Part shown: one piece after another, positions 14,875 to 49,688 of the stretch
How positions within the stretch are numbered: position 1 is the stretch's first letter
Layout: every line of letters starts with the position of its first letter
From: Peronospora farinosa
Lineage: Eukaryota; Oomycota; Peronosporomycetes; Peronosporales; Peronosporaceae
Reading direction: 5' to 3'
Assembly (NCBI GenBank): GCA_947646735.1
Contig: CANTFK010000103.1
Coordinates: 62,001 to 126,000, forward strand
Length of the DNA stretch: 64,000 nucleotides
Notes under the pieces: model-generated
Seen by the model: the letters and a program-made list of their open reading frames with translations, nothing else
Told to the model about the DNA's origin: nothing
Database searches by the model: none
Translations under genes and position numbers: made by a program

Positions 14875-14967
14875 TCCTCTCAAACAAATAGCACATTAGT
14901 GACTGTCGAGTGACTATAGGAAAGAAAGCGCTTGTTAGTTTTCTGTTGATCTAACAAGCCTCCTGTC

Positions 14968-16955: not shown

Positions 16956-18372
16956 TGTGGTGAAGTGCCAGGAGAATCGGGGCCCAGGGTACCAAGGCCC
17001 CAGGGTACCAGGGTACAGCTCAAGTTATGCGGACCACACACCCAGGATCGATCGCGATCCAAGGTAAAGCGCGATCCGACTCAGAACCTTGATCCGAATC
17101 AGAACCGCGATCCAAAACTGAGCGCGATCCGACTCAGAACCGCGATCCGACTTAGAACCGCAATCCGACTCAGAACCGCGATCCGACTCAGAACCGCGAT
17201 CCAAAGCTGAGCGCAATCCGACTCAGAATCGCGATCCAAAGCTGAGCGCAATCCGAGGCAAATCGCGATCCGACTCAGAACCGCGATCCGAATCAGAACC
17301 GCGATCCGAATCAGAACCGCGATCCAAGGCTGAGCGCGATCCGAGGCAGATCGCGATACGACTCAGAACCGCGATCCGAATCAGGACCGCGATCCAAGGC
17401 TAAACGCGATCCAAGGTAGACCGCGATCCAAGATAGACCGCGATCCGACTCAGAAGCGCGATCCGAATCAGGACCGCGATCCAAGGCTAAACGCGATCCA
17501 AGGTAGACCGCGATCCAAGATAGACCGCGATCCGACTCAGAAGCGCGATACAAGGTATTGCGCGATCCGACTCAGAATCGCGATCCAACGTAGGTCCGCG
17601 ATCCGACCTAGATCGCAATCCAACTCACAAGGATTACGCATTATGGATCGACCGCGATCCTGAGCTGATACGCGATCTGATTCGGATCGCGATCCAAGGA
17701 TAAGGCAAGATCGCCGATGGATCGGGATGGCAAAGGCAATTGGGGTGGACCACATATCGAGATCTGATTTTTTTCTGAAAAGATGACACGTGGTGATAGA
17801 TCCTGGAATACAGATTGGCAGAATCGTAGGTTTCGAGTTTTGATTGGTTAACACTAAACAGAGTTCAATTTTACTTCTAAGTACACGTGTCGACTTCTCT
17901 TCCGGGCTGGATTCTTTGGCCATCCGACGTCTCGAGAAAGCCTACACTACGCAAGTCATATCCCTGGATTGTTTGGCCAGGGATTGCAAGAACTCTCAAC
18001 ACAACTCAACTGCGATCGGACGCAGATAAACACGTAGGGCAAGGCGAAGCAAGTGCAGGACGGATCAAGTGGTCAGAAGATTCAAGCTTCGCTTTATTGG
18101 ATAACCGTGATCGATTGGGAAGATCACACCAAGTACTCGGTTTATCTTGTGAAGATTTCCACAAGATAACCAAACCTCCTATCCCTAACCCAATTAGGAT
18201 CAACATCGACTCAAGTCCACCGAGAAGAGAGCAACCCGCCCAGCCGACGGGTACACAAGGTGAAATAGGCTATATACACGGAATCGGGGTACCCCCTCCG
18301 TTAGTCGGTTATCGGGGCGCCAGTGGAGAGTTGGAATCGCATCAGCAATTTTGCGAATCCCACTACACCACA
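16956..18372 (-). mobile_element. U2: third-type copy of the TG...CA unit, enlarged by a minisatellite
   Basis: In minus orientation it begins TGTGGTGTAGTGGGATTCGC (ending at 18372) and ends near the TGTGGTGAAG at 16956. The 17840-18372 half matches U1 and U3 closely. The other half is replaced or expanded by an 18-bp tandem array. Flanking ATAC and GTAG do not match, so the insertion history is not clear. Confidence 0.6.
17041..17700. repeat. 18-bp minisatellite array (CGCGATCCGACTCAGAAC-type)
   Basis: About 600 bp of tandem units near CGCGATCCGACTCAGAAC, with variants GATCCGAATCAGAAC, GATCCAAGGCTGAG and GATCCAAGGTAGAC. Because 18 is six codons, open frames cross it on both strands; they encode only repeats and are not genes. 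A higher-order block of about 86 bp is repeated near 17367-17540. Confidence 0.85.
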
Positions 18373-18811
18373 GTAGCGGGGCACCCGCTAATTATATTTT
18401 AGAGTTTTATCTACCTTCACTGATCAAAGTGAAATCGGGTGCCTTAGTACTTTACGTACACGTGAACAGAGAAAGCTAACCAACGAAAGAAACGCTTAGT
18501 TGAGAAAGTAAAGAGAACTGTATTTAATATAGGTAAACTATCTAGTAGAAGTAATCTATTATAACGTGTTTATTCAAACTACAACTATGTACGATGACAA
18601 CTTACCCTCCTTTATTGCGCTTGTCCATCGGTCATTGGTTAGCGCATATAATGGCCTATGTCAACATGATAGAGGGCATTTTCAACTCCATGGAGATGCA
18701 GGGACAATATTTGAGGAAAATACAATATTGTTAAAATTATGAGCGATATTGATATTCTTATTGACACTTCATATAAGTGTCAATATTATATAACGGACTC
18801 ACCCCATTGCA
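18373..18811 (-). repeat. Element C right LTR (5' LTR in element orientation)
   Basis: Starts GTAGCGGGGCACCC, which matches the family-B LTR start TGTAATGGGGCACCC less its first base(s), directly next to the U2 end. It ends CACCCCATTGCA. Confidence 0.65.
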
Positions 18812-33777: not shown

Positions 33778-33782
33778 CATTT
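33778..33782. repeat. target-site duplication CATTT, left
   Basis: CATTT directly precedes LTR1 and recurs directly after LTR3 at 49689-49693. None flanks the middle LTR. Confidence 0.85.
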
Positions 33783-34242
33783 TGTAATGGGGCACCCTCC
33801 GACTATACTGATTACAGTATAGTCTACTTTCACTGATTACAGTGAAAGCAGGTGCCTCAATTACCTCTCTTACACAAGAGGCAGAGGAAGCTTTACTTCT
33901 AAACAAACGCTTAGAAGTAGAGGAAAAGAAAACTGTATTTAATATAGTTAACTATCTTAATAAAACTAATCTGTTATAACCTATGTTAACTATATTAAAC
34001 AACAACTATGTATGTCGACAACTTGCCCTCCACTCATTGCGCGTGTCCATCGGTCATTGGTCAGCGCGTTGGTTGATATGATGGCCCATATCAACCAATA
34101 AGAGGGCATCTCCAACTTCAAGGAGATCTAGGGACAATATTATAAGAAAAGATAATATTGTCAAAATATTATTAGTTATAATAATATTTTATTGACACTT
34201 CATATAAGTGTCAATATTATGTAACGGGCTCACCCCGTTACA
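33783..34242 (-). repeat. family-B LTR1 (3' LTR of copy 1)
   Basis: 460 bp, TGTAATGGGG...CCGTTACA on the plus strand. It is rich in hairpins, such as GGTTGATATG/CATATCAACC and ACAATATTA/TAATATTGT. It is probably the promoter region for the antisense ORF that starts 48 bp beyond it; that is inference. Confidence 0.9.
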
Positions 34243-34256
34243 TCACCCCCCCCTCA
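34243..34256 (-). other. polypurine tract of copy 1
   Basis: On the minus strand GAGGGGGGGGTGA directly precedes the 3' LTR, where plus-strand DNA synthesis would be primed. This copy has eight G in a row; copy 2 has seven. Confidence 0.75.
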
Positions 34257-34289
34257 ACCAACAGTCACATTAGTGACTGTTTAGTGACT

Positions 34290-36056
34290 ATGGGAAAGGA
34301 GAACTTGTTGAATTTTCTTTCATTCAACAATTACGCTATGACAAAGTCAATGCGCGTCGCTGCTAAGGCAGCCGAGAGCTCGGCTGCACGCCTGTGTGCA
34401 GCCGATACTGAGGCTTCACAGCCTCAGCCAGCAGACACTAATGTGTCTGCTGGAAGTCAACATCAGCCTGCAACGCCTGTTGCAGGTTCACGTAGCGCTT
34501 CGCCACGTGAAGATGTTGACCCAGAGTTAGTCGTTGACTACTCTGGTGAGTCGGATGACGCATCCGGCTCAAAGTCACCTATTCCACTCCCGGGCTCTCC
34601 CCGGGGTAATACCTCGTCGTCTAATGCTACGAAGAGGGATCGTGGTACATTGAGTGAATCAGTGTACCGTGAAATATTCGGGTCGTCTGATGAATCAGAC
34701 GACTCGCCAAACGAGTCGAAGGATAGTGACTCGGGTGGGGACCGTAAGGGTGATGTCAGTGCTTCTACTGACATCAATGCTCATAATGTCGGTACTTCTG
34801 TTGACACTAATGCTCGTGGTGTCGGTACTTCTGTTGACACCACGCAGGAGGCTTTAGACCGCAACGTATTGCGTCTTGCTCCTGATCGCAAGCCATGGAT
34901 GCTACCTAAGCATCTGCTTGATCGTTGGTCTGGAAAGACCAACGAACGGTTCTCCATACCGTTGTTTGATGCGTCAAAGCTTCACGGCCTTGACGCCAGT
35001 GCGAAGAACTTTCGCACTGAGAACGATTATTACATCGATGTGTTCCTTGAACATCGATGGTATGGCCCACACAAGAAGCGTGAGGCTGACGCGTTCCTCC
35101 AATCTTGGAACGCGTTTATCACCAACGTTTTAAACGTTGGGAAAGAGGCTTGGTTTCAAAGACTTTATGCTAGCCGCAATAAGTTTGAGAAACGAAGTAC
35201 TTCCGGTGCATGCTATCGTTTGCACCGGTTATCTAGAGAGGCAGGCCTGTTATGCCTCTCTTGGGGCGACCCATGCCCGGGGTGCCTGAGCCCCTCGTCA
35301 AGAGCGCCTAAGGAGGCATACCTCCTTACTGAGCCCTGGTGGAGGGCTCGCATCTCTTCCGAAATGCGTGAAGGGATTGCTACTTTGAAATCTCTTTACA
35401 AGCGCGCCGGGCGCTCGTTTTCCGATGGTCCTTCACCATCGGGTGCCCCTTGTCGTACTGTTCGACAAGGCCGGGAACGTCGGCCATCAGTTGGGCCCGA
35501 GGTTCCCAGCTATCCGCCGAAGGCGGATAGCCACGCCACCGGACGAGATAACTCGTCCGACGTCCCTTCACCTCGCGGTGCTTTAGTAAGCGTTCCACGA
35601 GGAAGCGCTTCCCACCATGGGAGTCCACCAGCGGATGCGGTGGTGGAGGGAAAACCCTGTCCGATTCTTTCATCGGACTTGGCTGCTGAGTTAGACGGGT
35701 TTGCCCGTGTAACTCGTGAGCTCCGTTGTGATGTTGATCACGAACGGGATAAGCGTCGCCGCTTAGAGGACATTGTGCGACAGCTTGGGTTTGACCATGA
35801 GAGGTCTCGGGCAAACAATGCTGTCGCACTATTGGAGAATGAACGGCAAGTTCATTCTCTGAGTAACGAGCTGGCGACAGCTCGTCAGGAGATCGTCCAA
35901 TATCATGGGAAGATCTCATCTCTACACGACCAGATATCGAATCTGGTTCGTGACAGCAAGAATCTGAAGGAGATTCTTGAGAATAACGGCTATCTTCGTC
36001 GTTCGAAGAAGCCGCGTACTAAACGTACGGACGAAGACGTCCCACGTAAAACGTAG
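34290..36056 (+). CDS. antisense-strand ORF of family B, copy 1 (588 aa, unknown function)
   Basis: An uninterrupted 588-aa ORF lies on the strand opposite gag-pol. It starts 48 bp inside the 3' LTR and overlaps the chromodomain ORF tail-to-tail from 35380. Visible parts are an Ala/Ser/Asp-rich N-terminus with DPELVVDYSGES at 77-88 and a repeat of GTSVDTN near 165-185. The middle is denser, with Trp (KPWMLPKHLLDRW, YYIDVFLEHRW, FLQSWNAFI), followed by a Ser/Pro/Arg linker. A ~100-residue coiled coil precedes a basic end (RRSKKPRTKR) that could be a nuclear signal. I recognise no known domain. It is intact although the sense genes of this copy carry five lesions. It might be a structural or regulatory accessory protein; that is speculation. 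Confidence 0.7.
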   Translation: MGKENLLNFLSFNNYAMTKSMRVAAKAAESSAARLCAADTEASQPQPADTNVSAGSQHQPATPVAGSRSASPREDVDPELVVDYSGESDDASGSKSPIPLPGSPRGNTSSSNATKRDRGTLSESVYREIFGSSDESDDSPNESKDSDSGGDRKGDVSASTDINAHNVGTSVDTNARGVGTSVDTTQEALDRNVLRLAPDRKPWMLPKHLLDRWSGKTNERFSIPLFDASKLHGLDASAKNFRTENDYYIDVFLEHRWYGPHKKREADAFLQSWNAFITNVLNVGKEAWFQRLYASRNKFEKRSTSGACYRLHRLSREAGLLCLSWGDPCPGCLSPSSRAPKEAYLLTEPWWRARISSEMREGIATLKSLYKRAGRSFSDGPSPSGAPCRTVRQGRERRPSVGPEVPSYPPKADSHATGRDNSSDVPSPRGALVSVPRGSASHHGSPPADAVVEGKPCPILSSDLAAELDGFARVTRELRCDVDHERDKRRRLEDIVRQLGFDHERSRANNAVALLENERQVHSLSNELATARQEIVQYHGKISSLHDQISNLVRDSKNLKEILENNGYLRRSKKPRTKRTDEDVPRKT

Positions 36057-39000
36057 GATGCGTACGCATCCTGCGTGGCAACTCGATCGTGTATGCGTTG
36101 CCTAGGCGGCGCAATACACGAAACGGGCCGATGTACTTGGGCAACAATTTATTGCTGCCCACGTTAGTCACTACATGTTTAGGTAGGTTTACTGTTGACA
36201 GTAAAACTAAATCACCTTCAATAAATGTTTGAGCATTTGCCCTTCCATTATTGTCTGCGTTTCGTTTTTGCTTATCCACCGCTTCCGCGATGGAATCTTG
36301 CACGAAACGGACTACCGCTTCACGAGTCAGCAGGAAATCCTCAGCTGACTCGTTGCTTTTGGCTGCAGTGCATTGTGAATGCACTGCAGAGATATCGGTT
36401 ACTAATTCAGTGAGAACATTACTGTTCTCACTTGTGATACCTCGAACGATGCTGATATCTTCAGCATCGTTGTCAGTAAGAGCGTCATCGCTCTTACTTT
36501 CTTCCTCTTCACCGAAGTCGAATGATACGACTTCGGTTACTTTCGCGTCGACCATAACGTCGTCGCGTGATGAGCAAGAGCCAGATTGGTTCTCGCTCGA
36601 GCGAGTTCCTCCCCCCTTGAATTAGAGTCACCTTCTACTAAGGTGGGGACACGTGGATGGCGAAGGCCATTCACGTAGAACGGTGTATGCGTCGTAGACG
36701 CATGCACGGAGTTGTTGATGGCGAATTCGACCATCGACAAGATCTCACTCCAACTCGTAAACGAGTGGACGTACCCTCGAAGAATCTCTTCGAGGACGCG
36801 ATTGGCGCGTTCAGTCTGACCATCAGTTTCTGGATGGTCAGAAGTAGACATTGTGAGCCGTGTTCCAAGTGTTCGGAACACGGAACGCCAAAACTCAGCC
36901 GTGAACCGGGGGTCCCTATCGGACACAAGTTCACGGGGTAAACCGTGCAATCGAAAGATTGTATCGATAAACACTCGAGCACAGCCCTCTGCTGTGATCG
37001 ACTCAGGTACAGCAACAAGATGTACCATCTTGCTGAACCTGTCTACAAACACGAGAATACCATTATTCCCGTGAGCGTCTTTGGGAAACCCAAAGACGAA
37101 GTCCATTGATACGGACTCCCAGCACTCTGCCGGAACAGGTAGAGGCTGCAATGGTGCACGGAGTGAAGGACTAGGCTTCACTCGTTGACACACCTCGCAA
37201 GCACGCACGTACTTGTGCACAAACTTATACTGGCGTGGCCAGTAAAAGTCGCGACTGACCGTGAGGTAAGTCTTCTCACGGCCGCGATGCCCACTTATTG
37301 GTGCATCGTGACATTCAAACATGATCCGTAACCTGAGATCATGTTGTGGCGGTACAACGACACGAGGCGTGTCGTTGTTGACGGCTGTGTAGTACAGTAA
37401 GCCGTCCCGCTGGGTGTATCGATCTAGAGAAGATCGATACATGGCAGGCAAGCGCTTCTTAGCTTGCGTGGATGGGTCCTTGAGGTACTCCATCAGGCGT
37501 ACAAGATCATTATCTTGTGCGCATGCCCTTCTAATGTCGTCGAGTAAGCTCGACGACAAGACGCTGGTACTCAGCGTGGCGACAGTGGTATTCACATCAC
37601 TGTCGGATTGCACAGTCGGCTCTAGGTCAGGCCGACGTGAAAGATCATCGGCGACGACGTTAAGTCGTCCTGGTTTATACTCCACGGAGAAGTTGTACTC
37701 CGCGAAGAACGACAACCACCTCGCCATTCGTTACGAGAGGTGTAGGCTGTTTACAGCCGTGCGTAGTGACGCATGGTCTGTATAGGTCTATCCCTTAAGA
37801 GATAGACGCGAAACTTAGCCAGTGCATACTTCATGGCGAGGAGTTCCTTGTCATGCACCGGGTAATTGCGCTCGGCCGGTTGCAGCTAACGCGATTGATA
37901 ACGGACGACACGCTCTGCGCCGTCTGTATCATATTGCATCAGTGCACAGCCGATTGCAAAATCACTGGCGTCACAGACCACATGAAATGGTCTGTCTTGA
38001 TCGGCAATCGCCAACACTGGCGATTGCATCAAGCTTTGCTTGATACGTTCAAAGGAACGCTGACAATCAGCGTTCCAGTTCCACTTTACATTTTTCTTGA
38101 GTAAACAAGAAAGATGTACTGTCATTTCGGCGTAATTGCGCGAGTACTTGTGCAAGTACGCCGCTAGCCCAAGGAACTTCCTTAGTCCCTTGACATCGAC
38201 TGGCACTGGCCAGTCGGTGATCGCCTTGATCTTTTCTGGATCAGGGCGTACGCCGTTCTTTCCGACGATGCACCCAAGAAGTGGTATTTCGCTAGCTGCG
38301 AATATACACTTCTTGAGGTTGGCGTACAACTTATGCTCGCATAAGTGTAAGAACCTTACGGAAGTGGAGTCTATGGACTTCCACGTCTGTTTTCCCGTCC
38401 ATAGCCCGACTATGGACGAACACATCATCGAAGTAACTCGGTGCGAATTCGCGCACCGGTCTCAATAGATGTGAAACACATCTATTGAATGTGGCTGGTG
38501 CATTACTAAGCCCTTGCGGCATCACCAACCATTCCCAGAGCATACCACTGGGAGTGCTCACTGCTGTGTACGGGATGTCCCGTTCACGCATTAGGATCTG
38601 ATAGAAACCATCCATCAGATCCATGGACGAAAAGATGGTACTCTTAGACATACCATCTATGATTACGTCCTTTCTCGGTATCGGCGTTTGCGCCGGTATC
38701 GTTGCAGCGTTCAACTTATTGAACGCGTGCACTATCCGCCACCCTCCTGTGGCCTTGCGCACACAGAAGGTCGGAGAGCTGTGAGGTGAAGTTGACTCCC
38801 TCACATGGCCCGCTGCTAGGCGATCGGCAAAGAACTTGTCGATCGCCTCGACCTGTTCCCGAGGCAGTGGCCACTGCTTCATGACACAATATTTTGTGCC
38901 AGGAACAAGGTCGATCTCGTGTCGAGTACCTTTATCCTTAGGTAACTCGCACGGAACGGATTCAGGGAATACATCCTTGAATTCGACCAAATCCTTATAC

Positions 39001-40217
39001 AAAGGATTTGACTTCAGCGACTCCCAGGATTGCGATGTATATCGCTCAATCCGAGTCTTCTCATCAAGGACACTCTCGTCCATTGATGAGCTGCTGAGAA
39101 CCCGTTCGTTCTCGGCAAAAACTGTTGCTGACCGAATGTCAGTCATGTACTCGTCCTCTGCGACGAGCACACAGATCTGCTTGACTTTGCCACTACGCAG
39201 ATCACGCAAGAACCTTTTAGGTTCTAGCGTAGGCAACTGAGTTATCTCCGAAGTTAACTTCGGAGGCGCGATCAGATCAAGCGTATAAGCGCCTACGTTT
39301 GATCCGTCATTAACCAAGACGTTCAACGTCTCGGTTTCCTCCTGGGGACTTATTCCCTCAGGGCACTGGGGACTTATTCCCTCAGTGATTATTTCCTGGG
39401 GACTTATTCCCGCAGGCTCGATGGAACCTGTTCCATCGACTTCCTCTAGCTGTGGTGGCGCAACCACAGCGAGATCCTCTACGATCAACTCTCCAGTTGA
39501 TCTAGGATTACCGTGTTGCCGCTTCTGGGCAACCGGTTTACTCTTCGGTGAATGCTGCCCTCTAGGCGAGCATTCATGTCCCGGTCCACTCGACTTATTC
39601 GAGTGGTGGACCTTCGGCGCTGCCTGTGCTTGTGCACAGCCGCCGGCAGCTTGCTCCACAGCGTGACTGTCTGTCACGCTGAGTTCTTGTGCAGTCGTAC
39701 TAACGACCGAACCACAAGTGAGGCCATCACACTCACTCGTAGTACATTCACACGCTTGTGAACGCTCCAAGACATTCATCAGATGGCCATCTGATGAACA
39801 AGCGGCAGGCATCTTCACGGTTCGATGCTGCCAGCTGACCCATGGCTCGTACCTTCTGAGCCATGGTAATCCTAGGATGACATCAAATTTGTCATCCAGA
39901 TCAAGTACGATGAAATCATCATCGTACTTTTTGCCTTCAAGCGTGTAGTGAATTCCCACTACACGTTTCTTTACTGTTACGGATGCGCCAGTTGCAAGGC
40001 GCACCGTCATCCTCGTTGGAGGGGTCTCGCGCTCAACATATTTGAGCCTACGATCATCTAGCGATTGGCGTCGAACAAAGTTGTTCGAAGCCCCACAATC
40101 AACTAGGGCGCGAAGTGACATGTTCTTTGTCACTTCGATCTTCAATGTGATGAGGGATACCTCATCACTGGGAGCGGCAACACACAGTGACTGTGTGTTG
40201 GGAGCAACCTTCGTCAA
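35380..40217 (-). pseudogene. pol: family-B pol, copy 1, inactivated
   Basis: The same PR-RT-RNase H-INT-chromodomain order as copy 2, broken by identifiable lesions. These are a 2-nt deletion near 38337 just after the RT core, a TAG at 37886-37888 in RNase H, a 10-nt deletion after 37784 in RNase H, and a TAG at 36019-36021 before the chromodomain. The catalytic Ala-Asp-Ala segment reads ADDLSRR instead of ADALSRR. PR, the first RT blocks, the integrase core and the chromodomain are individually intact. The -1 step between integrase core and chromodomain ORF (36537-36555) is the same as in copy 2 and so is not specific to this copy. Confidence 0.9.
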
Positions 40218-40267
40218 GAGTCCCGCGAACTCTCTTGACGTTGCTGGATCAGTAGGGCGCTCCGCCC

Positions 40268-41453
40268 CTACTGACCCCGACCGTTTTTTGATGGTCCACC
40301 ACGTTGTTGCGATTTCGCAGCAACGTGGGACCCACGTCTCTGGCCCTTCTTGGCAGACGGTCGATCGTCACTCCCAGTGTTACGAGACACTGGGCGTGGG
40401 GCACTACACTCATAAGCGTAGTGGCCCAACTTCTGACAGCGATTGCACTTTTGCAATCGCTTGTACCCTGGAGAGCGAGGTCGCTCGCTCTCTACATAGG
40501 AGAGGTCCATTGGTTCTGGACCTCCGCCCTCCTGTCGTCTCGGTGGACGATAGGATCCCGAGTGGACGTGAGCCTGTTGTAGGCTAAAGTCCTCCTGTTC
40601 CGCTGCAGAGATCGCTTGATCCAGCGATTCTAGCTCCAAGCGGAACAGGTGGGTCTTGACAGGACCATCTGTCAGACCCTTGATGAACACAGTAACCTGC
40701 GTGTGTTCATCGATTGGGTTCAGTACGATACAGCTAACGAGGTATCGTACGTGTTGGGCGTAAGCGTGTATATCACGCTTACCCTGTTTCAAATCCAGGA
40801 GCTCAGCCCGAGCCCTGAATTCGGCGCGAGGCGGTTCAAACGTGTGTTTGAGCCGCGCCTTGAAGACGTCATACGTTGGGAAAACGTATGGGTCGTGCAG
40901 TTTGAGCCCTAAGGCCCAAGCTTTGGCACGTCCTGCCAAGTTCGACATGGCGAACTTGACCTTCATCGCATCGTCATCGATGCGACGAGCCTCAATGGCA
41001 TCGTCGAGCTCGACGAACCATCTCAACAAGGAGTCGCTTTCGACTGCCTTGTACTTGGAGACATCAATCTTCAAGGACTCGGGTCGACGTGCATACGTCG
41101 ACCCGGCAGCAACAGCACTAGCCTGCTGTTGTCTCAACAGTTCAGACTGTTGAGCACCCTGCTGCATCAACAAGTCAGCTTGTTGAGCGCCTTGTTCTCT
41201 CAACAGTTCAACCTGTTGAGAACCTTGCTCCTCTAGCAAGGTGAGTTTCTTTACAACTTCGTCAAGTTCATGTTGTATGAACTTGGCGATGGTTGCATGT
41301 TGGTCGTCTCCGCTAAGAGAGAGCAACATGGCACCAACGGCAGGGTTGCCGATGGTTTCAGCCATACGCTGAACCGCATTCCATTTCGAGGTCACTCAAA
41401 TGGCGGAAATCATCACGCGTTGCGTGATGACGTTCATCACCCGCTGATTCCAT
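40268..41453 (-). pseudogene. gag: family-B gag, copy 1, frameshifted near its start
   Basis: Matches copy 2 gag except for one extra T near 41384, which throws the first ~23 codons out of frame. A long frame (375 aa with an alternative start) remains open after it and keeps the CCHC knuckle. Possibly still translated from an internal start, but the normal start is cut off. Confidence 0.8.
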
Positions 41454-41500
41454 AGCGGGTGGTGCGGTGGTCGCTGAACGGACCACGAAGTGCTACCAGG

Positions 41501-41960
41501 TGTAATGGGGCACCCTCCGACTATACTGATTACAGTATAGTCTACTTTCACTGATTACAGTGAAAGCAGGTGCCTCAATTACCTCTCTTACACAAGAGGC
41601 AGAGGAAGCTTTACTTCTAAACAAACGCTTAGAAGTAGAGGAAAAGAAAACTGTATTTAATATAGTTAACTATCTTAATAAAACTAATCTGTTATAACCT
41701 ATGTTAACTATATTAAACTACAACTATGTATGTCGACAACTTGCCCTCCACTCATTGCGCGCGTCCATCGGTCATTGGTCAGCGCGTTGGTTGATATGAT
41801 GGCCCATATCAACCAATAAGAGGGCATCTCCAACTTCAAGGAGATCTAGGAACAATATTATAAGAAAAGGTAATATTGTCAAAATATTATTAGTTATAAT
41901 AATATTTTATTGACACTTCATATAAGTGTCAATATTATGTAACGGGCTCACCCCGTTACA
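41501..41960 (-). repeat. family-B LTR2, shared by both copies
   Basis: 460 bp. It acts as 5' LTR of copy 1 and 3' LTR of copy 2. It differs from LTR3 at three sites I can see (GCGCGCGTCC, TAGGAACAAT, AAAAGGTAAT), making it the most diverged of the three. Confidence 0.9.
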
Positions 41961-41973
41961 TCACCCCCCCTCA
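41961..41973 (-). other. polypurine tract of copy 2
   Basis: Minus-strand GAGGGGGGGTGA directly before LTR2, which confirms minus orientation of the unit. Confidence 0.75.
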
Positions 41974-42006
41974 ACCAACAGTCACATTAGTGACTGTTTA
42001 GTGACT

Positions 42007-43773
42007 ATGGGAAAGGAGAACTTGTTGAATTTTCTTTCATTCAACAATTACGCTATGACAAAGTCAATGCGCGTCGCTGCTAAGGCAGCCGAGAGCTCGG
42101 CTGCACGCCTGTGTGCAGCCGCTACTGAGGCTTCACAGCCTCAGCCAGCAGACACTAATGTGTCTGCTGGAAGTCAACATCAGCCTGCAACGCCTGTTGC
42201 AGGTTCACGTAGCGCTTCGCCACGTGAAGATGTTGACCCAGAGTTAGTCGTTGACTACTCTGGTGAGTCGGATGACGCATCCGGCTCAAAGTCACCTATT
42301 CCACTCCCGGGCTCTCCCCGGGGTGATACCTCGTCGTCTAATGCTACGAAGAGGGATCGTGGTACATTGAGTGAATCAATGTACCGTGAAATGTTCGGGT
42401 CGTCTGATGAATCAGACGACTCGCCAAACGAGTCGAAGGATAGTGACTCGGGTGGGGACCGTAAGGGTGATGTCAGTGCTTCTACTGACATCAATAATCA
42501 TAGTGTCGGTACTTCTGTTGACACTAATGCTCGTGGTGTCGGTACTTCTGTTGACACCACGCAGGAGGCTTTAGACCGCAACGTATTGCGTCTTGCTCCT
42601 GATCGCAAGCCATGGATGCTACCTAAGCATCTGCTTGATCGTTGGTCTGGAAAGACCAACGAACGGTTCCCCATACCGTTGTTTGATGCGTCAAAGCTTC
42701 ACGGCCTTGACGCCAGTGCGAAGAACTTTCGCACTGAGAACGATTATTACATCGATGTGTTCCTTGAACATCGATGGTATGGCCCACACAAGAAGCGTGA
42801 GGCTGACGCGTTCCTCCAATCTTGGAACGCGTTTATCACCAACGTTTTAAACGTTGGGAAAGAGGCTTGGTTTCAAAGACTTTATGCTAGCCGCAATAAG
42901 TTTGAGAAACGAAGTACTTCCGGTGCATGCTATCGTTTGCACCGGTTATCTAGAGAGGCAGGCCTGTTATGCCTCTCTTGGGGCGACCCATGCCCGGGGT
43001 GCCTGAGCACCTCGTCAAGAGCGCCTAAGGAGGCGTACCTCCTTACTGAGCCCTGGTGGAGGGCTCGCATCTCTTCCGAAATGCGTGAAGGGATTGCTAC
43101 TTTGCAATCCCTTTACGAGCGCGCTGGGCGCTCGTTTTCCGATGGTCCTTCACCATCGGGTGCCCCTTGTCGTACTGTTCGACAAGGCCGGGAACGTCGG
43201 CCATCAGTTGGGCCCGAGGTTCCCAGCTATCCGCCGAAGGCGGATAGCCACGCCACCGGACGAGATAACTCGTCCGACGTCCCTTCACCTCGCGGTGCTT
43301 TAGTAAGCGTTCCACGAGGAAGCGCTTCCCACCATGGGAGTCCACCAGCGGATGCGGTGGTGGAGGGAAAACCCTGTCCGATTCTTTCATCGGACTTGGC
43401 TGCTGAGTTAGACGGGTTTGCCCGTGTAACTCGTGAGCTCCGTTGTGATGTTGATCACGAACGGGATAAGCGTCGCCGCTTAGAGGACATTGTGCGACAG
43501 CTTGGGTTTGACCATGAGAGGTCTCGGGCAAACAATGCTGTCGCACTATTGGAGAATGAACGGCGAGTTCATTCTCTGAGTAACGAGCTGGCGACAGCTC
43601 GTCAGGAGATCGTCCAATATCATGGGAAGATCTCATCTCTACACGACCAGATATCGAATCTGGTTCGTGACAACAAGAATCTGAAGGGGATTCTTGAGAA
43701 TAACGGCTATCTTCGTCGTTCGAAGAAGCCGCGTACTGAACGTACGGACGAAGACGTCCCACGTAAAACGTAG
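42007..43773 (+). CDS. antisense-strand ORF of family B, copy 2 (588 aa, unknown function)
   Basis: Same length and layout as copy 1, starting at the ATG at 42007, 46 bp from LTR2. About 13 residues differ between the copies and none shifts the frame. The last 677 nt (43097-43773) are coding on both strands: coiled coil and basic tail on this strand, integrase SH3-like region to chromodomain on the other. The upstream extension to 41926 uses a GTG inside the LTR and is less likely. The start lies right next to the polypurine tract, so a transcript would probably begin in the LTR. Confidence 0.72.
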   Translation: MGKENLLNFLSFNNYAMTKSMRVAAKAAESSAARLCAAATEASQPQPADTNVSAGSQHQPATPVAGSRSASPREDVDPELVVDYSGESDDASGSKSPIPLPGSPRGDTSSSNATKRDRGTLSESMYREMFGSSDESDDSPNESKDSDSGGDRKGDVSASTDINNHSVGTSVDTNARGVGTSVDTTQEALDRNVLRLAPDRKPWMLPKHLLDRWSGKTNERFPIPLFDASKLHGLDASAKNFRTENDYYIDVFLEHRWYGPHKKREADAFLQSWNAFITNVLNVGKEAWFQRLYASRNKFEKRSTSGACYRLHRLSREAGLLCLSWGDPCPGCLSTSSRAPKEAYLLTEPWWRARISSEMREGIATLQSLYERAGRSFSDGPSPSGAPCRTVRQGRERRPSVGPEVPSYPPKADSHATGRDNSSDVPSPRGALVSVPRGSASHHGSPPADAVVEGKPCPILSSDLAAELDGFARVTRELRCDVDHERDKRRRLEDIVRQLGFDHERSRANNAVALLENERRVHSLSNELATARQEIVQYHGKISSLHDQISNLVRDNKNLKGILENNGYLRRSKKPRTERTDEDVPRKT

Positions 43774-44272
43774 GATGCGTACGCATCCTGCGTGGCAACT
43801 CGATCGTGTATGCGTTGCCTAGGCGGCGCAATACACGAAACGGGCCGATGTACTTGGGCAACAATTTATTGCTGCCCACGTTAGTCACTACATGTTTAGG
43901 TAGGTTTACTGTTGACAGTAAAACTAAATCACCTTCAATAAATGTTTGAGCATTTGCCCTTCCATTATTGTCTGCGTTTCGTTTTTGCTTATCCACCGCT
44001 TCCGCGATGGAATCTTGCACGAAACGGACTACCGCTTCACGAGTCAGCAGGAAATCCTCAGCTGACTCGTTGCTTTTGGCTGCAGTGCATTGTGAATGCA
44101 CTGCAGAGATATCGGTTACTAATTCAGTGAGAACATTACTGTTCTCACTTGTGATACCTCGAACGATGCTGATATCTTCAGCATCGTTGTCAGTAAGAGC
44201 GTCATCGCTCTTACTTTCTTCCTCTTCACCGAAGTCGAATGATACGACTTCGGTTACTTTCGCGTCGACCAT
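43097..44272 (-). CDS. integrase C-terminal region with chromodomain, family B copy 2
   Basis: 391 aa from the ATG at 44272. An acidic N-terminus is followed by a helix typical of integrase tails (AVDKQKRNAD, ~92-101). Then come an SH3-like fold (LLPKYIGPFRVL, 137-148; THPTFYVGRLRPY), a long Ser/His-rich linker, and a chromodomain at about 317-370 (RFLVERLL, YLVRWRGYP, DSWEP). The chromodomain is complete, including the W/E pair. It overlaps pol by 19 nt in the -1 frame, so it is made either by frameshifting, by re-initiation, or not at all. Its last 677 nt are antisense to the 588-aa ORF. Chromodomains of this class guide integration to modified histones. Confidence 0.85.
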   Translation of the reverse strand: MVDAKVTEVVSFDFGEEEESKSDDALTDNDAEDISIVRGITSENSNVLTELVTDISAVHSQCTAAKSNESAEDFLLTREAVVRFVQDSIAEAVDKQKRNADNNGRANAQTFIEGDLVLLSTVNLPKHVVTNVGSNKLLPKYIGPFRVLRRLGNAYTIELPRRMRTHPTFYVGRLRPYVQYAASSNDEDSRYSQESPSDSCCHEPDSISGRVEMRSSHDIGRSPDELSPARYSENELAVHSPIVRQHCLPETSHGQTQAVAQCPLSGDAYPVRDQHHNGAHELHGQTRLTQQPSPMKESDRVFPPPPHPLVDSHGGKRFLVERLLKHREVKGRRTSYLVRWRGYPPSADSWEPRAQLMADVPGLVEQYDKGHPMVKDHRKTSAQRARKGIAK

Positions 44273-47200
44273 AACGTCGTCGCGTGATGAGCAAGAGCCA
44301 GATTGGTTCTCGCTCGAGCGAGTTCCTCCCCCCTTAAATTAGAGTCACCTTCTACTAAGGTGGGGACACGTGGATGGCGAAGGCCATTCACGTAGAACGG
44401 TGTATGCGTCGTAGACGCATGCACGGAGTTGTTGATGGCGAATTCGACCATCGACAAGAACTCACTCCAACTCGTAAACGAGTGGACGTACCCTCGAAGA
44501 ATCTCTTCGAGGACGCGATTGGCGCGTTCAGTCTGACCATCAGTTTCTGGATGGTCAGAAGTAGACATTGTGAGCCGTGTTCCAAGTGTTTGGAACACGG
44601 AACGCCAAAACTCAGCCGTGAACCGGGGGTCCCTATCGGACACAAGTTCACGGGGTAAACCGTGCAATCGAAAGATTGTATCGATAAACACTCGAGCACA
44701 GCCCTCTGCTGTGATCGACTCAGGTACAGCAACAAGATGTACCATCTTGCTGAACCTGTCTACAAACACGAGAATACCATTATTCCCGTGAGCGTCTTTG
44801 GGAAACCCAAAGACGAAGTCCATTGATACGGACTCCCAGCACTCTGCCGGAACAGGTAGAGGCTGCAATGGTGCACGGAGTGAAGGACTAGGCTTCACTC
44901 GTTGACACACCTCGCAAGCACGCACGTACTTGCGCACAAACTTATACTGGCGTGGCCAGTAAAAGTCGCGACTGACCGTGAGGTAAGTCTTCTCACGGCC
45001 GCGATGCCCACTTATTGGTGCATCGTGACATTCAAACATGATCCGTAACCTGAGATCATGTTGTGGCGGTACAACGACACGAGGCGTGTCGTTGTTGACG
45101 GCTGTGTAGTACAGTAAGCCGTCCCGCTGGGTGTATCGATCTAGAGAAGATCGATACATGGCAGGCAAGCGCTTCTTAGCTTGCGTGGATGGGTCCTTGA
45201 GGTACTCCATCAGGCGTACAAGATCATTATCTTGTGCGCATGCCCTTCTAATGTCGTCGAGTAAGCTCGACGACAAGACGCTGGTACTCAGCGTGGCGAC
45301 AGTGGTGTTCACATCACTGTCGGATTGCACAGTCGGCTCTAGGTCAGGCCGACGTGAAAGAGCATCGGCGACGACGTTAAGTCGTCCCGGCTTATACTCC
45401 ACGGAGAAGTTGTACTCCGCGAAGAATGACAACCATCTCGCCATTCGTTGCGAGAGGTGTGGGCTATTTACAGCCGTGCGTAGTGACGCATGGTCTGTAT
45501 ATACAATGAACGGTCTATCCCCTAAGAGATAGACGCGAAACTTAGCCAGTGCATACTTCATGGCAAGGAGTTCCTTGTCATGCACCGGGTAATTGCGCTC
45601 AGCCGGTTGCAGCTGACGCGATTGATAACAGACGACACGCTCGGCGCCGTCTGTATCATATTGCATCAGTGCGCAGCCGATTGCAAAATCACTGGCGTCA
45701 CAGACCACATGAAATGGTCTGTCTTGATCGGCAATCGCCAACACTGGCGATTGCATCAAGCTTTGCTTGATACGTTCAAAGGAACGCTGACAATCAGCGT
45801 TCCAGTTCCACTTTACATTTTTCTTGAGTAAACAAGAAAGATGTACTGTCATTTCGGCGTAATTGCGCGAGTACTTGTGCAAGTACGCCGCTAGCCCAAG
45901 GAACTTCCTTAGTCCCTTGACATCGACTGGCACTGGCCAGTCGGTGATCGCCTTGATCTTTTCTGGATCAGGGCGTACGCCGTTCTTTCCGACGATGCAC
46001 CCAAGAAGTGGTATTTCGCTAGCTGCGAATATACACTTCTTGAGGTTGGCGTACAACTTATGCTCTCGCATAAGTGTAAGAACCTTACGGACGTGGAGTC
46101 TATGGACTTCCACGTCTGTTTTCCCGTCCATAGCCCGACTATGGACGAACACATCATCGAAGTAACTCGGTGCGAATTCGCGCACCGGTCTCAATAGATG
46201 TGAAACACATCTATTGAATGTGGCTGGTGCATTACTAAGCCCTTGCGGCATCACCAACCATTCCCAGAGCATACCACTGGGAGTGCTCACTGCTGTGTAC
46301 GGGATGTCCCGTTCACGCATTAGGATCTGATAGAAACCATCCATCAGATCCATGGACGAAAAGATGGTACTCTTAGACATACCATCTATGATTACGTCCT
46401 TTCTCGGTATCGGCGTTTGCGCCGGTATCGTTGCAGCGTTCAACTTATTGAACGCGTGCACTATCCGCCACCCTCCTGTGGCCTTGCGCACACAGAAGGT
46501 CGGAGAGCTGTGAGGTGAAGTTGACTCCCTCACATGGCCCGCTGCTAGGCGATCGGCAAAGAACTTGTCGATCGCCTCGACCTGTTCCCGAGGCAGTGGC
46601 CACTGCTTCATGACACAATATTTTGTGCCAGGAACAAGGTCGATCTCGTGTCGAGTACCTTTATCCTTAGGTAACTCGCACGGAACGGATTCAGGGAATA
46701 CATCCTTGAATTCGACCAAATCCTTATACAAAGGATTTGACTTCAGCGACTCCCAGGATTGCGATGTATATCGCTCAATCCGAGTCTTCTCATCAAGGAC
46801 ACTCTCGTCCATTGATGAGCTGCTGAGAACCCGTTCGTTCTCGGCAAAAACTGTTGCTGACCGAATGTCAGTCATGTACTCGTCCTCTGCGACGAGCACA
46901 CAGATCTGCTTGACTTTGCCACTACGCAGATCACGCAAGAACCTTTTAGGTTCTAGCGTAGGCAACTGAGTTATCTCCGAAGTTAACTTCGGAGGCGCGA
47001 TCAGATCAAGCGTATAAGCGCCTACGATTGATCCGTCATTAACCAAGACGTTCAACGTCTCGGTTTCCTCCTGGGGACTTATTCCCTCAGGGCACTGGGG
47101 ACTTATTCCCTCAGTGATTATTTCCTGGGGACTTATTCCCGCAGGCTCGATGGAACCTGTTCCATCGACTTCCTCTAGCTGTGGTGGCGCAACCACAGCG

Positions 47201-47946
47201 AGATCCTCTACGATCAACTCTCCAGTTGATCTAGGATTACCGTGTTGCCGCTTCTGGGCAACCGGTTTACTCTTCGGTGAATGCTGCCCTCTAGGCGAGC
47301 ATTCATGTCCCGGTCCACTCGACTTATTCGAGTGGTGGACCTTCGGCGCTGCCTGTGCTTGTGCACAGCCGCCGGCAGCTTGCTCCACAGCGTGACTGTC
47401 TGTCACGCTGAGTTCTTGTGCAGTCGTACTAACGACCGAACCACAAGTGAGGCCATCACACTCACTCGTAGTACATTCACACGCTTGTGAACGCTCCAAG
47501 ACATTCATCAGATGGCCATCTGATGAACAAGCGGCAGGCATCTTCACGGTTCGATGCTGCCAGCTGACCCATGGCTCGTACCTTCTGAGCCATGGTAATC
47601 CTAGGATGACATCAAATTTGTCATCCAGATCAAGTACGATGAAATCATCATCGTACTTTTTGCCTTCAAGCGTGTAGTGAATTCCCACTACACGTTTCTT
47701 TACTGTTACGGATGCGCCAGTTGCAAGGCGCACCGTCATCCTCGTTGGAGGGGTCTCGCGCTCAACATATTTGAGCCTACGATCATCTAGCGATTGGCGT
47801 CGAACAAAGTTGTTCGAAGCCCCACAATCAACTAGGGCGCGAAGTGACATGTTCTTTGTCACTTCGATCTTCAATGTGATGAGGGATACCTCATCACTGG
47901 GAGCGGCAACACACAGTGACTGTGTGTTGGGAGCAACCTTCGTCAA
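44254..47946 (-). CDS. pol: family-B pol, copy 2: protease, RT, RNase H, integrase core
   Basis: 1,230 codons without a stop, in the -1 frame relative to gag, as usual for gypsy elements. Protease active site is DCGA at 40-43, an unusual DCG in place of DSG/DTG. RT has DLMDGFYQ near 533 and YFDD at 595-598. RNase H has VVCDAS (Asp750), KELL (Glu792), YTDHAS (Asp818) and ADALSRR (Asp861). Integrase has an H2C2 domain ending CEVCQRV (Cys1011, Cys1014) and DDE residues Asp1043, Asp1104 and Glu1140 with the typical 35-residue spacing. A GISPQ pentapeptide occurs three times in the PR-RT linker near 271-291. The listed start is a TTG; true synthesis is probably as a Gag-Pol fusion. All catalytic residues look intact. 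Confidence 0.92.
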   Translation of the reverse strand: MTKVAPNTQSLCVAAPSDEVSLITLKIEVTKNMSLRALVDCGASNNFVRRQSLDDRRLKYVERETPPTRMTVRLATGASVTVKKRVVGIHYTLEGKKYDDDFIVLDLDDKFDVILGLPWLRRYEPWVSWQHRTVKMPAACSSDGHLMNVLERSQACECTTSECDGLTCGSVVSTTAQELSVTDSHAVEQAAGGCAQAQAAPKVHHSNKSSGPGHECSPRGQHSPKSKPVAQKRQHGNPRSTGELIVEDLAVVAPPQLEEVDGTGSIEPAGISPQEIITEGISPQCPEGISPQEETETLNVLVNDGSIVGAYTLDLIAPPKLTSEITQLPTLEPKRFLRDLRSGKVKQICVLVAEDEYMTDIRSATVFAENERVLSSSSMDESVLDEKTRIERYTSQSWESLKSNPLYKDLVEFKDVFPESVPCELPKDKGTRHEIDLVPGTKYCVMKQWPLPREQVEAIDKFFADRLAAGHVRESTSPHSSPTFCVRKATGGWRIVHAFNKLNAATIPAQTPIPRKDVIIDGMSKSTIFSSMDLMDGFYQILMRERDIPYTAVSTPSGMLWEWLVMPQGLSNAPATFNRCVSHLLRPVREFAPSYFDDVFVHSRAMDGKTDVEVHRLHVRKVLTLMREHKLYANLKKCIFAASEIPLLGCIVGKNGVRPDPEKIKAITDWPVPVDVKGLRKFLGLAAYLHKYSRNYAEMTVHLSCLLKKNVKWNWNADCQRSFERIKQSLMQSPVLAIADQDRPFHVVCDASDFAIGCALMQYDTDGAERVVCYQSRQLQPAERNYPVHDKELLAMKYALAKFRVYLLGDRPFIVYTDHASLRTAVNSPHLSQRMARWLSFFAEYNFSVEYKPGRLNVVADALSRRPDLEPTVQSDSDVNTTVATLSTSVLSSSLLDDIRRACAQDNDLVRLMEYLKDPSTQAKKRLPAMYRSSLDRYTQRDGLLYYTAVNNDTPRVVVPPQHDLRLRIMFECHDAPISGHRGREKTYLTVSRDFYWPRQYKFVRKYVRACEVCQRVKPSPSLRAPLQPLPVPAECWESVSMDFVFGFPKDAHGNNGILVFVDRFSKMVHLVAVPESITAEGCARVFIDTIFRLHGLPRELVSDRDPRFTAEFWRSVFQTLGTRLTMSTSDHPETDGQTERANRVLEEILRGYVHSFTSWSEFLSMVEFAINNSVHASTTHTPFYVNGLRHPRVPTLVEGDSNLRGEELARARTNLALAHHATTLWSTRK

Positions 47947-47996
47947 GAGTCCCGCGAACTCTCTTGACGTTGCTGGATCAGTAGGGCGCTCCGCCC

Positions 47997-49181
47997 CTAC
48001 TGACCCCGACCGTTTTTTGATGGTCCACCACGTTGTTGCGATTTCGCAGCAGCGTGGGACCCACGTCTCTGGCCCTTCTTGGCAGACGGTCGATCGTCAC
48101 TCCCAGTGTTACGAGACACTGGGCGTGGGGCACTACACTCATAAGCGTAGTGGCCCAACTTCTGACAGCGATTGCACTTTTGCAATCGCTTGTACCCTGG
48201 AGAGCGAGGTCGCTCGCTCTCTACATAGGAGAGGTCCATTGGTTCTGGACCTCCGCCCTCCTGTCGTCTCGGTGGACGATAGGATCCCGAGTGGACGTGA
48301 GCCTGTTGTAGGCTAAAGTCCTCCTGTTCCGCTGCAGAGATCGCTTGATCCAGCGATTCTAGCTCCAAGCGGAACAGGTGGGTCTTGACAGGACCATCTG
48401 TCAGACCCTTGATGAACACAGTAACCTGCGTGTGTTCATCGATTGGGTTCAGTACGATACAGCTAACGAGGTATCGTACGTGTTGGGCGTAAGCGTGTAT
48501 ATCACGCTTACCCTGTTTCAAATCCAGGAGCTCAGCCCGAGCCCTGAATTCGGCGCGAGGCGGTTCAAACGTGTGTTTGAGCCGCGCCTTGAAGACGTCA
48601 TACGTTGGGAAAACGTATGGGTCGTGCAGTTTGAGCCCTAAGGCCCAAGCTTTGGCACGTCCTGCCAAGTTCGACATGGCGAACTTGACCTTCATCGCAT
48701 CGTCATCGATGCGACGAGCCTCAATGGCATCGTCGAGCTCGACGAACCATCTCAACAAGGAGTCGCTTTCGACTGCCTTGTACTTGGAGACATCAATCTT
48801 CAAGGACTCGGGTCGACGTGCATACGTCGACCCGGCAGCAACAGCACTAGCCTGCTGTTGTCTCAACAGTTCAGACTGTTGAGCACCCTGCTGCATCAAC
48901 AAGTCAGCTTGTTGAGCGCCTTGTTCTCTCAACAGTTCAACCTGTTGAGAACCTTGCTCCTCTAGCAAGGTGAGTTTCTTTACAACTTCGTCAAGTTCAT
49001 GTTGTATGAACTTGGCGATGGTTGCATGTTGGTCGTCTCCGCTAAGAGAGAGCAACATGGCACCAACGGCAGGGTTGCCGATGGTTTCAGCCATACGCTG
49101 AACCGCATTCCATTCGAGGTCACTCAAATGGCGGAAATCATCACGCGTTGCGTGATGACGTTCATCACCCGCTGATTCCAT
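47997..49181 (-). CDS. gag: family-B gag, copy 2
   Basis: 394 aa from the ATG at 49181, 47 nt inside the 5' LTR. An N-terminal region carries three related repeats of the EEQGSQQVELLREQ type, probably a coiled coil. A retrotransposon-gag domain follows (LLRWFVELDDAI, MSNLAGRAKAWAL, FIKGLTDGPV), then a CCHC knuckle at 336-349 (CNRCQKLGHYAYEC) and a basic Arg/Gly/Gln-rich tail. It forms the capsid and binds genomic RNA. The TAG stop (47997-47999) is followed by pol in the -1 frame. Intact. Confidence 0.92.
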   Translation of the reverse strand: MESAGDERHHATRDDFRHLSDLEWNAVQRMAETIGNPAVGAMLLSLSGDDQHATIAKFIQHELDEVVKKLTLLEEQGSQQVELLREQGAQQADLLMQQGAQQSELLRQQQASAVAAGSTYARRPESLKIDVSKYKAVESDSLLRWFVELDDAIEARRIDDDAMKVKFAMSNLAGRAKAWALGLKLHDPYVFPTYDVFKARLKHTFEPPRAEFRARAELLDLKQGKRDIHAYAQHVRYLVSCIVLNPIDEHTQVTVFIKGLTDGPVKTHLFRLELESLDQAISAAEQEDFSLQQAHVHSGSYRPPRRQEGGGPEPMDLSYVESERPRSPGYKRLQKCNRCQKLGHYAYECSAPRPVSRNTGSDDRPSAKKGQRRGSHAAAKSQQRGGPSKNGRGQ

Positions 49182-49210
49182 AGCGGGTGGTGCGGTGGTC
49201 GCTGAACGGA

Positions 49211-49228
49211 CCACGAAGTGCTACCAGG
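49211..49228 (-). other. primer-binding site of copy 2
   Basis: Minus-strand CCTGGTAGCACTTCGTGG directly follows the 5' LTR. TGGTAGCA equals the first eight bases of an initiator-Met-type site. TGGTAGCACT is shared with the family-E copies E2 and E3. Confidence 0.6.
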
Positions 49229-49688
49229 TGTAATGGGGCACCCTCCGACTATACTGATTACAGTATAGTCTACTTTCACTGATTACAGTGAAAGCAGGTG
49301 CCTCAATTACCTCTCTTACACAAGAGGCAGAGGAAGCTTTACTTCTAAACAAACGCTTAGAAGTAGAGGAAAAGAAAACTGTATTTAATATAGTTAACTA
49401 TCTTAATAAAACTAATCTGTTATAACCTATGTTAACTATATTAAACTACAACTATGTATGTCGACAACTTGCCCTCCACTCATTGCGCGTGTCCATCGGT
49501 CATTGGTCAGCGCGTTGGTTGATATGATGGCCCATATCAACCAATAAGAGGGCATCTCCAACTTCAAGGAGATCTAGGGACAATATTATAAGAAAAGATA
49601 ATATTGTCAAAATATTATTAGTTATAATAATATTTTATTGACACTTCATATAAGTGTCAATATTATGTAACGGGCTCACCCCGTTACA
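49229..49688 (-). repeat. family-B LTR3 (5' LTR of copy 2)
   Basis: 460 bp, differing from LTR1 at about one site. Its minus-strand start TGTAACGG supplies the in-frame TAA that ends the interrupted effector frame. Confidence 0.92.

What the first reader, a model, noticed from the sequence alone, without database searches (positions are those of the whole stretch)
33783..49688. Family-B retrotransposon is tiled with short perfect inverted repeats
Both coding and LTR sequence consist of successive small hairpins. In 34261-35560 alone I counted 19 perfect stems of at least 8 bp with loops of at most 13 nt, for example 34305-34330 (9 bp), 34428-34453 (11 bp), 34682-34703 (10 bp) and 35509-35531 (10 bp). 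With equal base use about 0.3 would be expected. The pattern continues through pol, with 20-nt palindromes at 39246-39265 and 39777-39796 and a 10-bp stem at 39904-39928. VPS35 exon 3 shows no such density by eye. The proteins remain normal, so synonymous choice must carry much of it. Possible causes are selection for genomic-RNA structure, interaction with small-RNA pathways, or repeated hairpin-templated (quasi-palindrome) mutation during reverse transcription. All three are inference.
Basis: partly seen in the sequence, partly recalled or inferred. Interest (0 to 1): 0.87.

Follow-up and report, generated by a model that had tools for sequence, protein, structure and literature searches.

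The report
Retrotransposon tiled with short hairpins
A jumping element in a downy-mildew genome spells its normal proteins with a choice of codons that lets almost its whole length, on both strands, fold into small hairpins; structured RNA viruses show a weaker form of this.

Summary
34261-35560 holds 22 perfect stems of >=8 bp with loops <=13 (reader: 19); the seven named examples are exact. The window holds 290 such stems against 12 in dinucleotide shuffles; 216 start at 33001-50000. Shuffles keeping protein and dinucleotides give about 3% of the stems in pol, 4% in gag and 7% in the antisense ORF; VPS35 has none. The element is a Ty3/gypsy chromovirus on the minus strand with an antisense ORF, probably of Peronospora effusa. 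Mean folding-energy excess is 49%; a coronavirus paper gives genome means of 7-23% for structured RNA viruses. Three related families reach 11-14%; one Copia family and host DNA about 0. Variants shared by several copies avoid stems, while private ones hit stems and loops alike, so the stems are kept in the replicating lineage. The pattern is strand-symmetric, poor in G-U, and not GC-rich. Best reading: selected self-folding of both strands, perhaps shielding an element transcribed both ways from dsRNA silencing. That function is inferred. Templated mutation is not excluded.

The parts
33783..34242 (-). LTR 1 of the tandem array (460 nt)
   Evidence: 5-bp target duplication CATTT outside LTR1 and LTR3 (flanks printed)
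41501..41960 (-). LTR 2, shared by the two units; 8 stems >=8 bp against 0.07 in shuffles
49229..49688 (-). LTR 3 (5' LTR of unit 2 in gag-pol sense)
47997..49214 (-). gag ORF (Retrotrans_gag; zinc-knuckle match below its cut-off); 20 stems >=8 against 0.80 in protein+dinucleotide shuffles
44254..47946 (-). pol ORF 1230 aa (protease, RT, RNase H, integrase); 39 stems >=8 in 44275-47946 against 1.10
43097..44272 (-). ORF with Tf2-1-like SH3 and chromodomain
41926..43773 (+). antisense ORF 615 aa (aORF), no Pfam match; related proteins in Peronospora matthiolae and Hyaloperonospora; 20 stems >=8 in 41926-43095 against 1.35
38331..40217 (-). part of the pol frame of unit 1 (628 aa); the pol frame is split in this unit
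40268..41395 (-). gag ORF of unit 1 (375 aa)
36537..37727 (-). integrase-bearing ORF of unit 1 (396 aa)
41961..41976 (-). polypurine tract next to the 3' LTR (read by eye, inference)
   Evidence: sequence printed
49209..49226 (-). putative primer-binding site next to the 5' LTR (read by eye; tRNA not identified)
   Evidence: sequence printed
41787..41816 (.). example hairpin, 12 bp, 6-nt loop, in the LTR
44080..44106 (.). example hairpin, 12 bp, 3-nt loop, in the chromodomain ORF
46191..46217 (.). example hairpin, 12 bp, 3-nt loop, in pol
39246..39265 (.).
14564..18811 (-). relative R: LTRs and an aORF region full of stops, 73% identical to the B family there; excess folding 14-18% on average

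Best explanation
An ambisense Ty3/gypsy chromovirus whose whole length, LTRs and coding sequence alike, has been evolved mainly by synonymous choice into consecutive short hairpins: perfect stems up to 12 bp, commonest loops 4-5 nt. SHOWN: the stems exceed protein- and dinucleotide-preserving nulls about 15- to 35-fold; the excess holds equally on both strands; stems are spared by variants that several copies share, while private variants hit stems and loops alike. So the cause acts in the replicating lineage rather than in inserted DNA. [quoted passage not shown] INFERRED: the benefit is that the sense RNA and antisense transcripts (needed for the antisense ORF) each fold locally. This would slow sense-antisense duplex formation and hide siRNA target sites, with perfect stems kept too short to be Dicer substrates (that limit is recalled).
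For: Density and nulls. Loops peak at 4 and 5 nt (28 and 22 stems) and reach background by about 14 nt, so single strands fold; no perfect stem exceeds 12 bp. Excess folding 49.2% (22 pieces, minimum 38.0) against 11.0, 11.7 and 13.7% in three related families, -0.2 and 0.8% in two loci of one Copia family, 1.4 and -2.0% in two host stretches. Strand symmetry: z -5.41 sense, -5.27 antisense; single mismatches in 8-bp arms 23 sense G-U, 23 antisense G-U; G-U share of predicted pairs 0.054/0.055 against 0.117/0.125 shuffled. Variants shared by >=3 of up to 28 elements: 15 at 1786 stem sites, 24 at 608 loop sites, 48 at 3646 others; private variants 170, 62, 456; Fisher shared/private, stem against loop, P=5e-5. 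Families L051 and L052 (62.5% nt identity in pol) share 12 stems against 1.2-1.7 after codon shuffling. Relative R keeps 8 of 37 B stems; like-for-like random redistribution of its differences keeps 1.6 to 2.3. Arm residues are not more diverged. 8-mers with P(unpaired)>0.1: pol 4.0% against 11.1% codon-shuffled. In Phytophthora infestans, small RNAs map along two abundant Gypsy elements in both orientations (passages of PMC3522703). A review notes that antisense transcripts of such elements may form dsRNA that inhibits transposition (passages of PMC7264820).
Against: No small-RNA, transcript or probing data were available; antisense RNA across gag and pol is not shown. Arms are not richer in GC than the rest (51.0 against 52.0%) and loops show no GNRA/UNCG excess by eye, unlike selection for stability. 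Part of the stem/loop contrast is a loop excess: shared variants are 0.0084 per stem site, 0.0395 per loop site, 0.0132 elsewhere. Formal covariation is weak: L051 stems in L052, 17 of 34 double changes stay paired against 12.6 with shuffled partners, P=0.08; the eight other comparisons at stems >=7 have higher P; at stems >=6 one of two reaches P=0.03. B stems are not shared with L051, L052 or L053 clearly beyond chance (2, 2, 0). Stem density is no higher in the antisense ORF than in gag or the LTR. At the stricter P(unpaired)>0.5, accessible 8-mers differ little (0.5 against 0.8%). R has lost most homologous stems and shows no G-U depletion, yet was inserted recently (LTRs 97.6% identical over 294 nt), so dense hairpins are not needed for movement. 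Only one Copia family was seen.
Confidence: 0.38

Rival explanations
1. Hairpin-templated mutation during reverse transcription: the nascent strand folds back, copies its own arm and returns, turning imperfect into perfect inverted repeats; purifying selection on the proteins removes costly cases. No benefit to the element is needed.
For: Perfect Watson-Crick arms, strand symmetry, no GC or loop-motif preference. 3' arms of B pol stems are more diverged from the three outgroup families than 5' arms (0.493 against 0.425 over 54 stems, Wilcoxon P=0.06; L051 0.408 against 0.363, P=0.19; L052 0.367 against 0.376, P=0.90), as overwriting of one arm would give. Private transitions beside stems: 17 at the 128 positions where a transition would complete a pair, 18 at the 255 where it would not.
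Against: Stem by stem, differences are not piled into one arm: mean arm difference 2.0 against 2.15 expected (B/L051), 2.09 against 2.15 (B/L052), 2.06 against 2.17 (B/L053), 1.37 against 1.79 and 1.19 against 1.98 (L051/L052 both ways); B/R goes slightly the other way, 2.09 against 1.84, with the 5' arm more diverged. Of 22 clusters of private changes, 3 gain or lengthen a stem, 7 lose or shorten one, 12 leave it. Arm residues are not more diverged. The LTR, free of protein, is not much denser than gag (17.4 against 16.4 per kb).
Confidence: 0.22
2. Selection on single-stranded DNA: hairpins in the minus-strand cDNA help or protect reverse transcription. DNA hairpins do not gain from G-T pairs as RNA does from G-U (recalled), which gives strand symmetry.
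For: G-U is depleted on both strands of B, and the antisense (cDNA) polarity folds better in L053 (-7.1 +- 1.9) and in family C internal DNA (-5.3 +- 1.5).
Against: One Copia family, which also makes single-stranded cDNA, shows about 0% excess. No direct evidence.
Confidence: 0.2
3. Ordinary genomic-RNA structure (GORS-like or packaging) selected in the gag-pol sense RNA alone.
For: 51 of 51 150-nt pieces of B have z<-2 in the sense strand, and stem sites are spared in shared variants.
Against: Sense G-U should be tolerated and enriched: it is 23 against 23 for antisense G-U and 6 against 4 among shared stem variants. The antisense strand folds as well.
Confidence: 0.15
4. Chance, base composition or coding artefact.
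For: None found.
Confidence: 0.01

Closest known systems
[quoted passage not shown]
   Same: Excess folding along the whole coding genome, many consecutive stem-loops, short interrupted duplexes, positions poorly conserved between relatives, paired sites less variable (abstract and passages of PMC7642675).
   Different: A DNA-integrating retrotransposon; mean excess about 49% against genome means of 7-23% quoted there (that paper also reports local peaks above 50%); perfect stems; symmetric on both strands; G-U poor.
LTR retrotransposons with an antisense additional ORF between pol and the 3' LTR (maize Grande, rice RIRE2, Silene Retand)
   Same: Antisense ORF beside the 3' LTR (passages of PMC7264820).
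   Different: The passages read mention no hairpin tiling; here the host is an oomycete.
Quasi-palindrome correction / template-switch mutation (recalled)
   Same: Would yield short perfect inverted repeats with small loops.
   Different: Stem-by-stem one-arm pattern not found; a weak overall arm asymmetry remains.

Membership tests
Ty3/gypsy chromovirus | protease-RT-RNase H-integrase order, chromodomain, gag, LTRs with TG..CA ends, 5-bp target duplication | tested here: met
   the zinc-knuckle match of gag is below its cut-off
GORS | excess folding energy over dinucleotide shuffles along most of the genome | tested here: met
   49.2% mean, minimum 38.0 over 22 pieces
GORS | the structure is of the genomic RNA strand | tested here: inconclusive
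   both strands equal in B; no sense G-U excess
GORS | single-stranded RNA virus of a persistently infected host | tested here: not met
   integrated LTR retrotransposon
GORS | structure seen by chemical probing or probe inaccessibility | not testable with these tools
   no experimental data
Template-switch (quasi-palindrome) mutation | changes confined to one arm, copied from the other | tested here: inconclusive
   no one-arm pile-up stem by stem, but 3' arms of B somewhat more diverged, P=0.06
Dicer-substrate hairpins / miRNA precursors | long near-perfect stems (about 20 bp or more; recalled) | tested here: inconclusive
   longest perfect stem 12 bp; longer imperfect stems were not surveyed

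The most novel reading that the evidence does not exclude
A retrotransposon family has re-spelled its entire genome so that both its sense RNA and its antisense RNA fold into tiled short hairpins, a two-strand armour against host RNA silencing; related gypsy families in the same genome carry weaker versions.
Probability: 0.3. Interest if true: 0.9.

Novelty: new variant of a known kind. Interest (0 to 1): 0.77.

Why it matters
If right, pervasive self-folding is not special to RNA viruses but also evolves, far more strongly, in retrotransposons that face RNA silencing. Gypsy families in this one genome range from about 11% to 49% excess, so the open question of what pervasive folding is for becomes testable in one organism, by comparing small-RNA yield per transcript. 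If templated mutation turns out to be the cause, it would be a hairpin-making reverse transcriptase, which I do not know to have been described (recall, not searched to exhaustion).

Tried and rejected
Rejected: composition or codon artefact; regular spacing (centre spacing median 40, sd 42; hairpins mostly abut); tetraloop motifs; a sense-strand G-U signature. Host-genome mutation as the source is disfavoured: inserted copies lose stems (1049 perfect of 1377 covered in 31 copies), though somewhat fewer than the 458 losses expected if arms mutated like the rest, and private variants hit stems (0.095 per site) about as often as loops (0.102; elsewhere 0.125). Led nowhere: viral contigs gave no relative of pol; covariation tests are weak; no family intermediate between B and R was seen (only the best candidates are scored). 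Codon register, stems >=6: pol uses the third-to-third register less than shuffles (15 of 81 against 32%), but gag (9 of 34 against 26%) and the aORF (15 of 32 against 47%) do not differ; the chromodomain part has 2 of 9 against 40%. Literature: nine searches of the held open library showed no listing that describes this pattern in a retrotransposon; papers were seen as search listings except three read in passages. That is not proof of absence. The expected number of B stems kept in R first came from too strict a rule (0.35) and is replaced by a like-for-like null.
Full report
OBSERVATION. The whole window holds 290 against 12.25 +- 2.93 in 20 dinucleotide shuffles; 216 of these start in 33001-50000. 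Unit 41501-49688 has 114 against 1.57, LTR2 8 against 0.07, and 30% of bases lie inside arms of stems >=7 bp against 1.1% in one shuffle. Shuffles that keep protein and dinucleotides give 0.80 for gag (observed 20), 1.10 for pol (39), 1.35 for the antisense ORF (20) and 0.40 for the chromodomain part (7); the VPS35 ORF has 0 with 0.50 expected, the family C gag ORF 1 with 0.30 expected (VPS35 confirmed by Pfam).

ANATOMY. Three LTRs (33783-34242, 41501-41960, 49229-49688) bound two tandem units, with CATTT on both outer sides. Gag, pol and a chromodomain ORF are on the minus strand; a 615-aa ORF lies on the plus strand beside the 3' LTR. The pol frame of unit 1 is split. The nearest protein on record is 99% identical and from Peronospora effusa, so the species is probably that one (inference). 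The antisense ORF has 50 relatives on record, three of them from P. effusa itself, many from P. matthiolae. The DNA search of the window's genome scored 40 candidates and listed 41 matches, 40 of them at 95-100% identity over nearly the whole query, so copy numbers are lower bounds.

SHAPE OF THE HAIRPINS. In unit 2 loops of stems >=7 peak at 4 and 5 nt (28 and 22), with 14 at 3 nt, 15 in all at 0-2 nt, and reach background by about 14 nt, so single strands, not DNA palindromes as such, are what fold. Perfect stems run to 12 bp and no further, in the LTRs and coding sequence seen. Hairpins abut: 42 of 127 gaps are under 10 nt. Arms are 51.0% GC against 52.0% between hairpins, and loop motifs look unremarkable. 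In predicted folds 87% of pairs span <=40 nt against 51% in one shuffle.

STRENGTH. Excess folding in 350-nt pieces is 49.2% (22 pieces, 38.0 to 73.2). Related families L051, L052 and L053 reach 11.0, 11.7 and 13.7%; two loci of one Copia family give -0.2 and 0.8%; two host stretches give 1.4 and -2.0%. Along the window on its plus strand the tandem array averages 49.2% (45 pieces), family C 30.0% (22), 7.2-14.1 kb 17.5% (19), 53.3-58.2 kb 16.0% (13), R 14.1% (11), and four other stretches 1.4, -1.3, 3.5 and 6.7%. The paper PMC7642675 (abstract and passages) gives genome means of 7-9% for HCV, about 15% for SARS-CoV-2 and 23.4% as the highest it had recorded, with a local peak above 50% in one SARS-CoV-2 gene; its shuffling program and step differ from mine.

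STRAND. Mean z is -5.41 sense and -5.27 antisense over 51 pieces; single interior mismatches in 8-bp arms are 23 sense G-U, 23 antisense G-U and 34 other. In 200-nt pieces the sense-minus-antisense excess is -2.3 +- 1.8 (B), -5.3 +- 1.5 (family C internal), -2.4 +- 1.7 (L051), -1.2 +- 1.4 (L052), -7.1 +- 1.9 (L053) and +3.6 +- 2.7 (R); the G-U share is halved in B on both strands but not reduced in R's sense strand and little in its antisense (0.136/0.106 against 0.136/0.118). So the gag-pol RNA is not the favoured strand in these families except possibly R.

EVOLUTION. Among up to 28 B elements (partial loci; sites with at least 8 elements), private variants are 170 at 1786 stem sites, 62 at 608 loop sites and 456 at 3646 others; variants shared by >=3 elements are 15, 24 and 48. 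Shared variants are 4.7 times rarer per site in stems than in loops and 1.6 times rarer than elsewhere, while private ones are 0.095, 0.102 and 0.125 per site. Of the 15 shared stem variants, 6 give sense G-U, 4 antisense G-U, 4 mismatch, 1 a Watson-Crick pair. One two-sided G-C to A-T change was seen in one element, at 45737/45748. In 31 copies 1049 of 1377 covered stems are still perfect, with 919 expected if arms mutated like the rest.

BETWEEN FAMILIES. L051 and L052 share 12 stems (>=6 bp) against 1.2 and 1.7 after codon shuffling of either; six pairs in them changed on both sides. But these shared stems were chosen for being perfect in both, and without that choice covariation is weak: 17 of 34 against 12.6 (P=0.08), 14 of 30 against 11.0 (P=0.17), and nothing between B and the others. 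B shares 2, 2 and 0 stems with L051, L052 and L053, close to chance. Relative R, whose aORF region holds 20-37 stops per frame, keeps 6 of 28 B stems there (random redistribution of its differences: mean 1.2, or 1.6 within 60-column blocks; 1 and 0 of 300 trials reach 6) and 2 of 9 in the LTR (0.4 and 0.8; 19 and 39 of 300 reach 2). R averages 18.4% excess on the minus strand and 14.1% on the plus strand.

MECHANISM. Selection on both strands' folding explains strand symmetry, G-U poverty, the freedom of position and the sparing of stems. Templated mutation also explains perfect arms without GC preference; it predicts one-arm changes, which were not found stem by stem, and a cost to the protein, also not found (21 of 156 arm residues differ from the outgroup majority at >=50% conservation against 65 of 487 elsewhere). 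Three results lean its way: 3' arms of B are more diverged than 5' arms (0.493 against 0.425, P=0.06), the slight B/R over-dispersion (2.09 against 1.84), and private transitions beside stems (17 at 128 positions that complete a pair against 18 at 255 that do not). I cannot separate RNA on both strands from single-stranded cDNA. I prefer the RNA reading because of the antisense ORF, the lack of the pattern in the one Copia family seen, and published small RNAs on both strands of Gypsy elements in an oomycete (PMC3522703, passages).

LIMITS. No sequence from other oomycetes could be fetched as DNA. The five Copia loci are one family (99.8-99.9% identical); their 2, 5, 2, 10 and 2 stems >=8 stand against 0.53-0.77 in shuffles, and the surplus in L060 and L062 lies outside the Copia match: L060 carries flanking DNA 97% like B, L062 flanking DNA 80-83% like B. 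Folding energy was taken for L059 and L061 alone. Family C has three short plus-strand ORFs (131, 190 and 158 aa) at the matching end, perhaps a broken antisense ORF; so the link between an antisense ORF and folding rests on few families.

Noticed in passing
window 41926-43773 and 34284-36056: The antisense ORF is an uncharacterised protein family of downy mildews (50 relatives found; no Pfam match to the 615-aa protein). L051-L054 have open stretches of 368-471 aa in the same place; those of L051 and L052 are related (28%), while B's shows no significant BLAST similarity to theirs.
   Followed up: partly
window 14564-18811: Relative R: no other copy closer than 79% over a part or 73% over the whole was among the 41 matches listed; aORF region full of stops, no B-like gag-pol match between its LTRs, yet its LTRs are 97.6% identical over 294 nt, so it seems to have moved recently.
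   Followed up: partly
window 17033-17629: Array of about 17-18-nt units (CGCGATCC...) inside R.
   Followed up: no
window 19833-27760: Family C averages 30% excess folding with fewer perfect stems; its LTR holds loop-free palindromes and a TA run. Parts of it recur inverted at about 10-12 kb and 55 kb.
   Followed up: partly
window 58200-64000: One 350-nt piece has 58.6% excess folding in a stretch that averages 6.7%.
   Followed up: no
L051 6308-6689, L052 3155-3547, L053 6248-6760: Tandem repeats inside the pol frames of related families.
   Followed up: no
element on G000:C232 (L008), aligned to window 43754-44191: Several dense clusters of private changes, as if a stretch came from another subfamily by recombination.
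   Followed up: no
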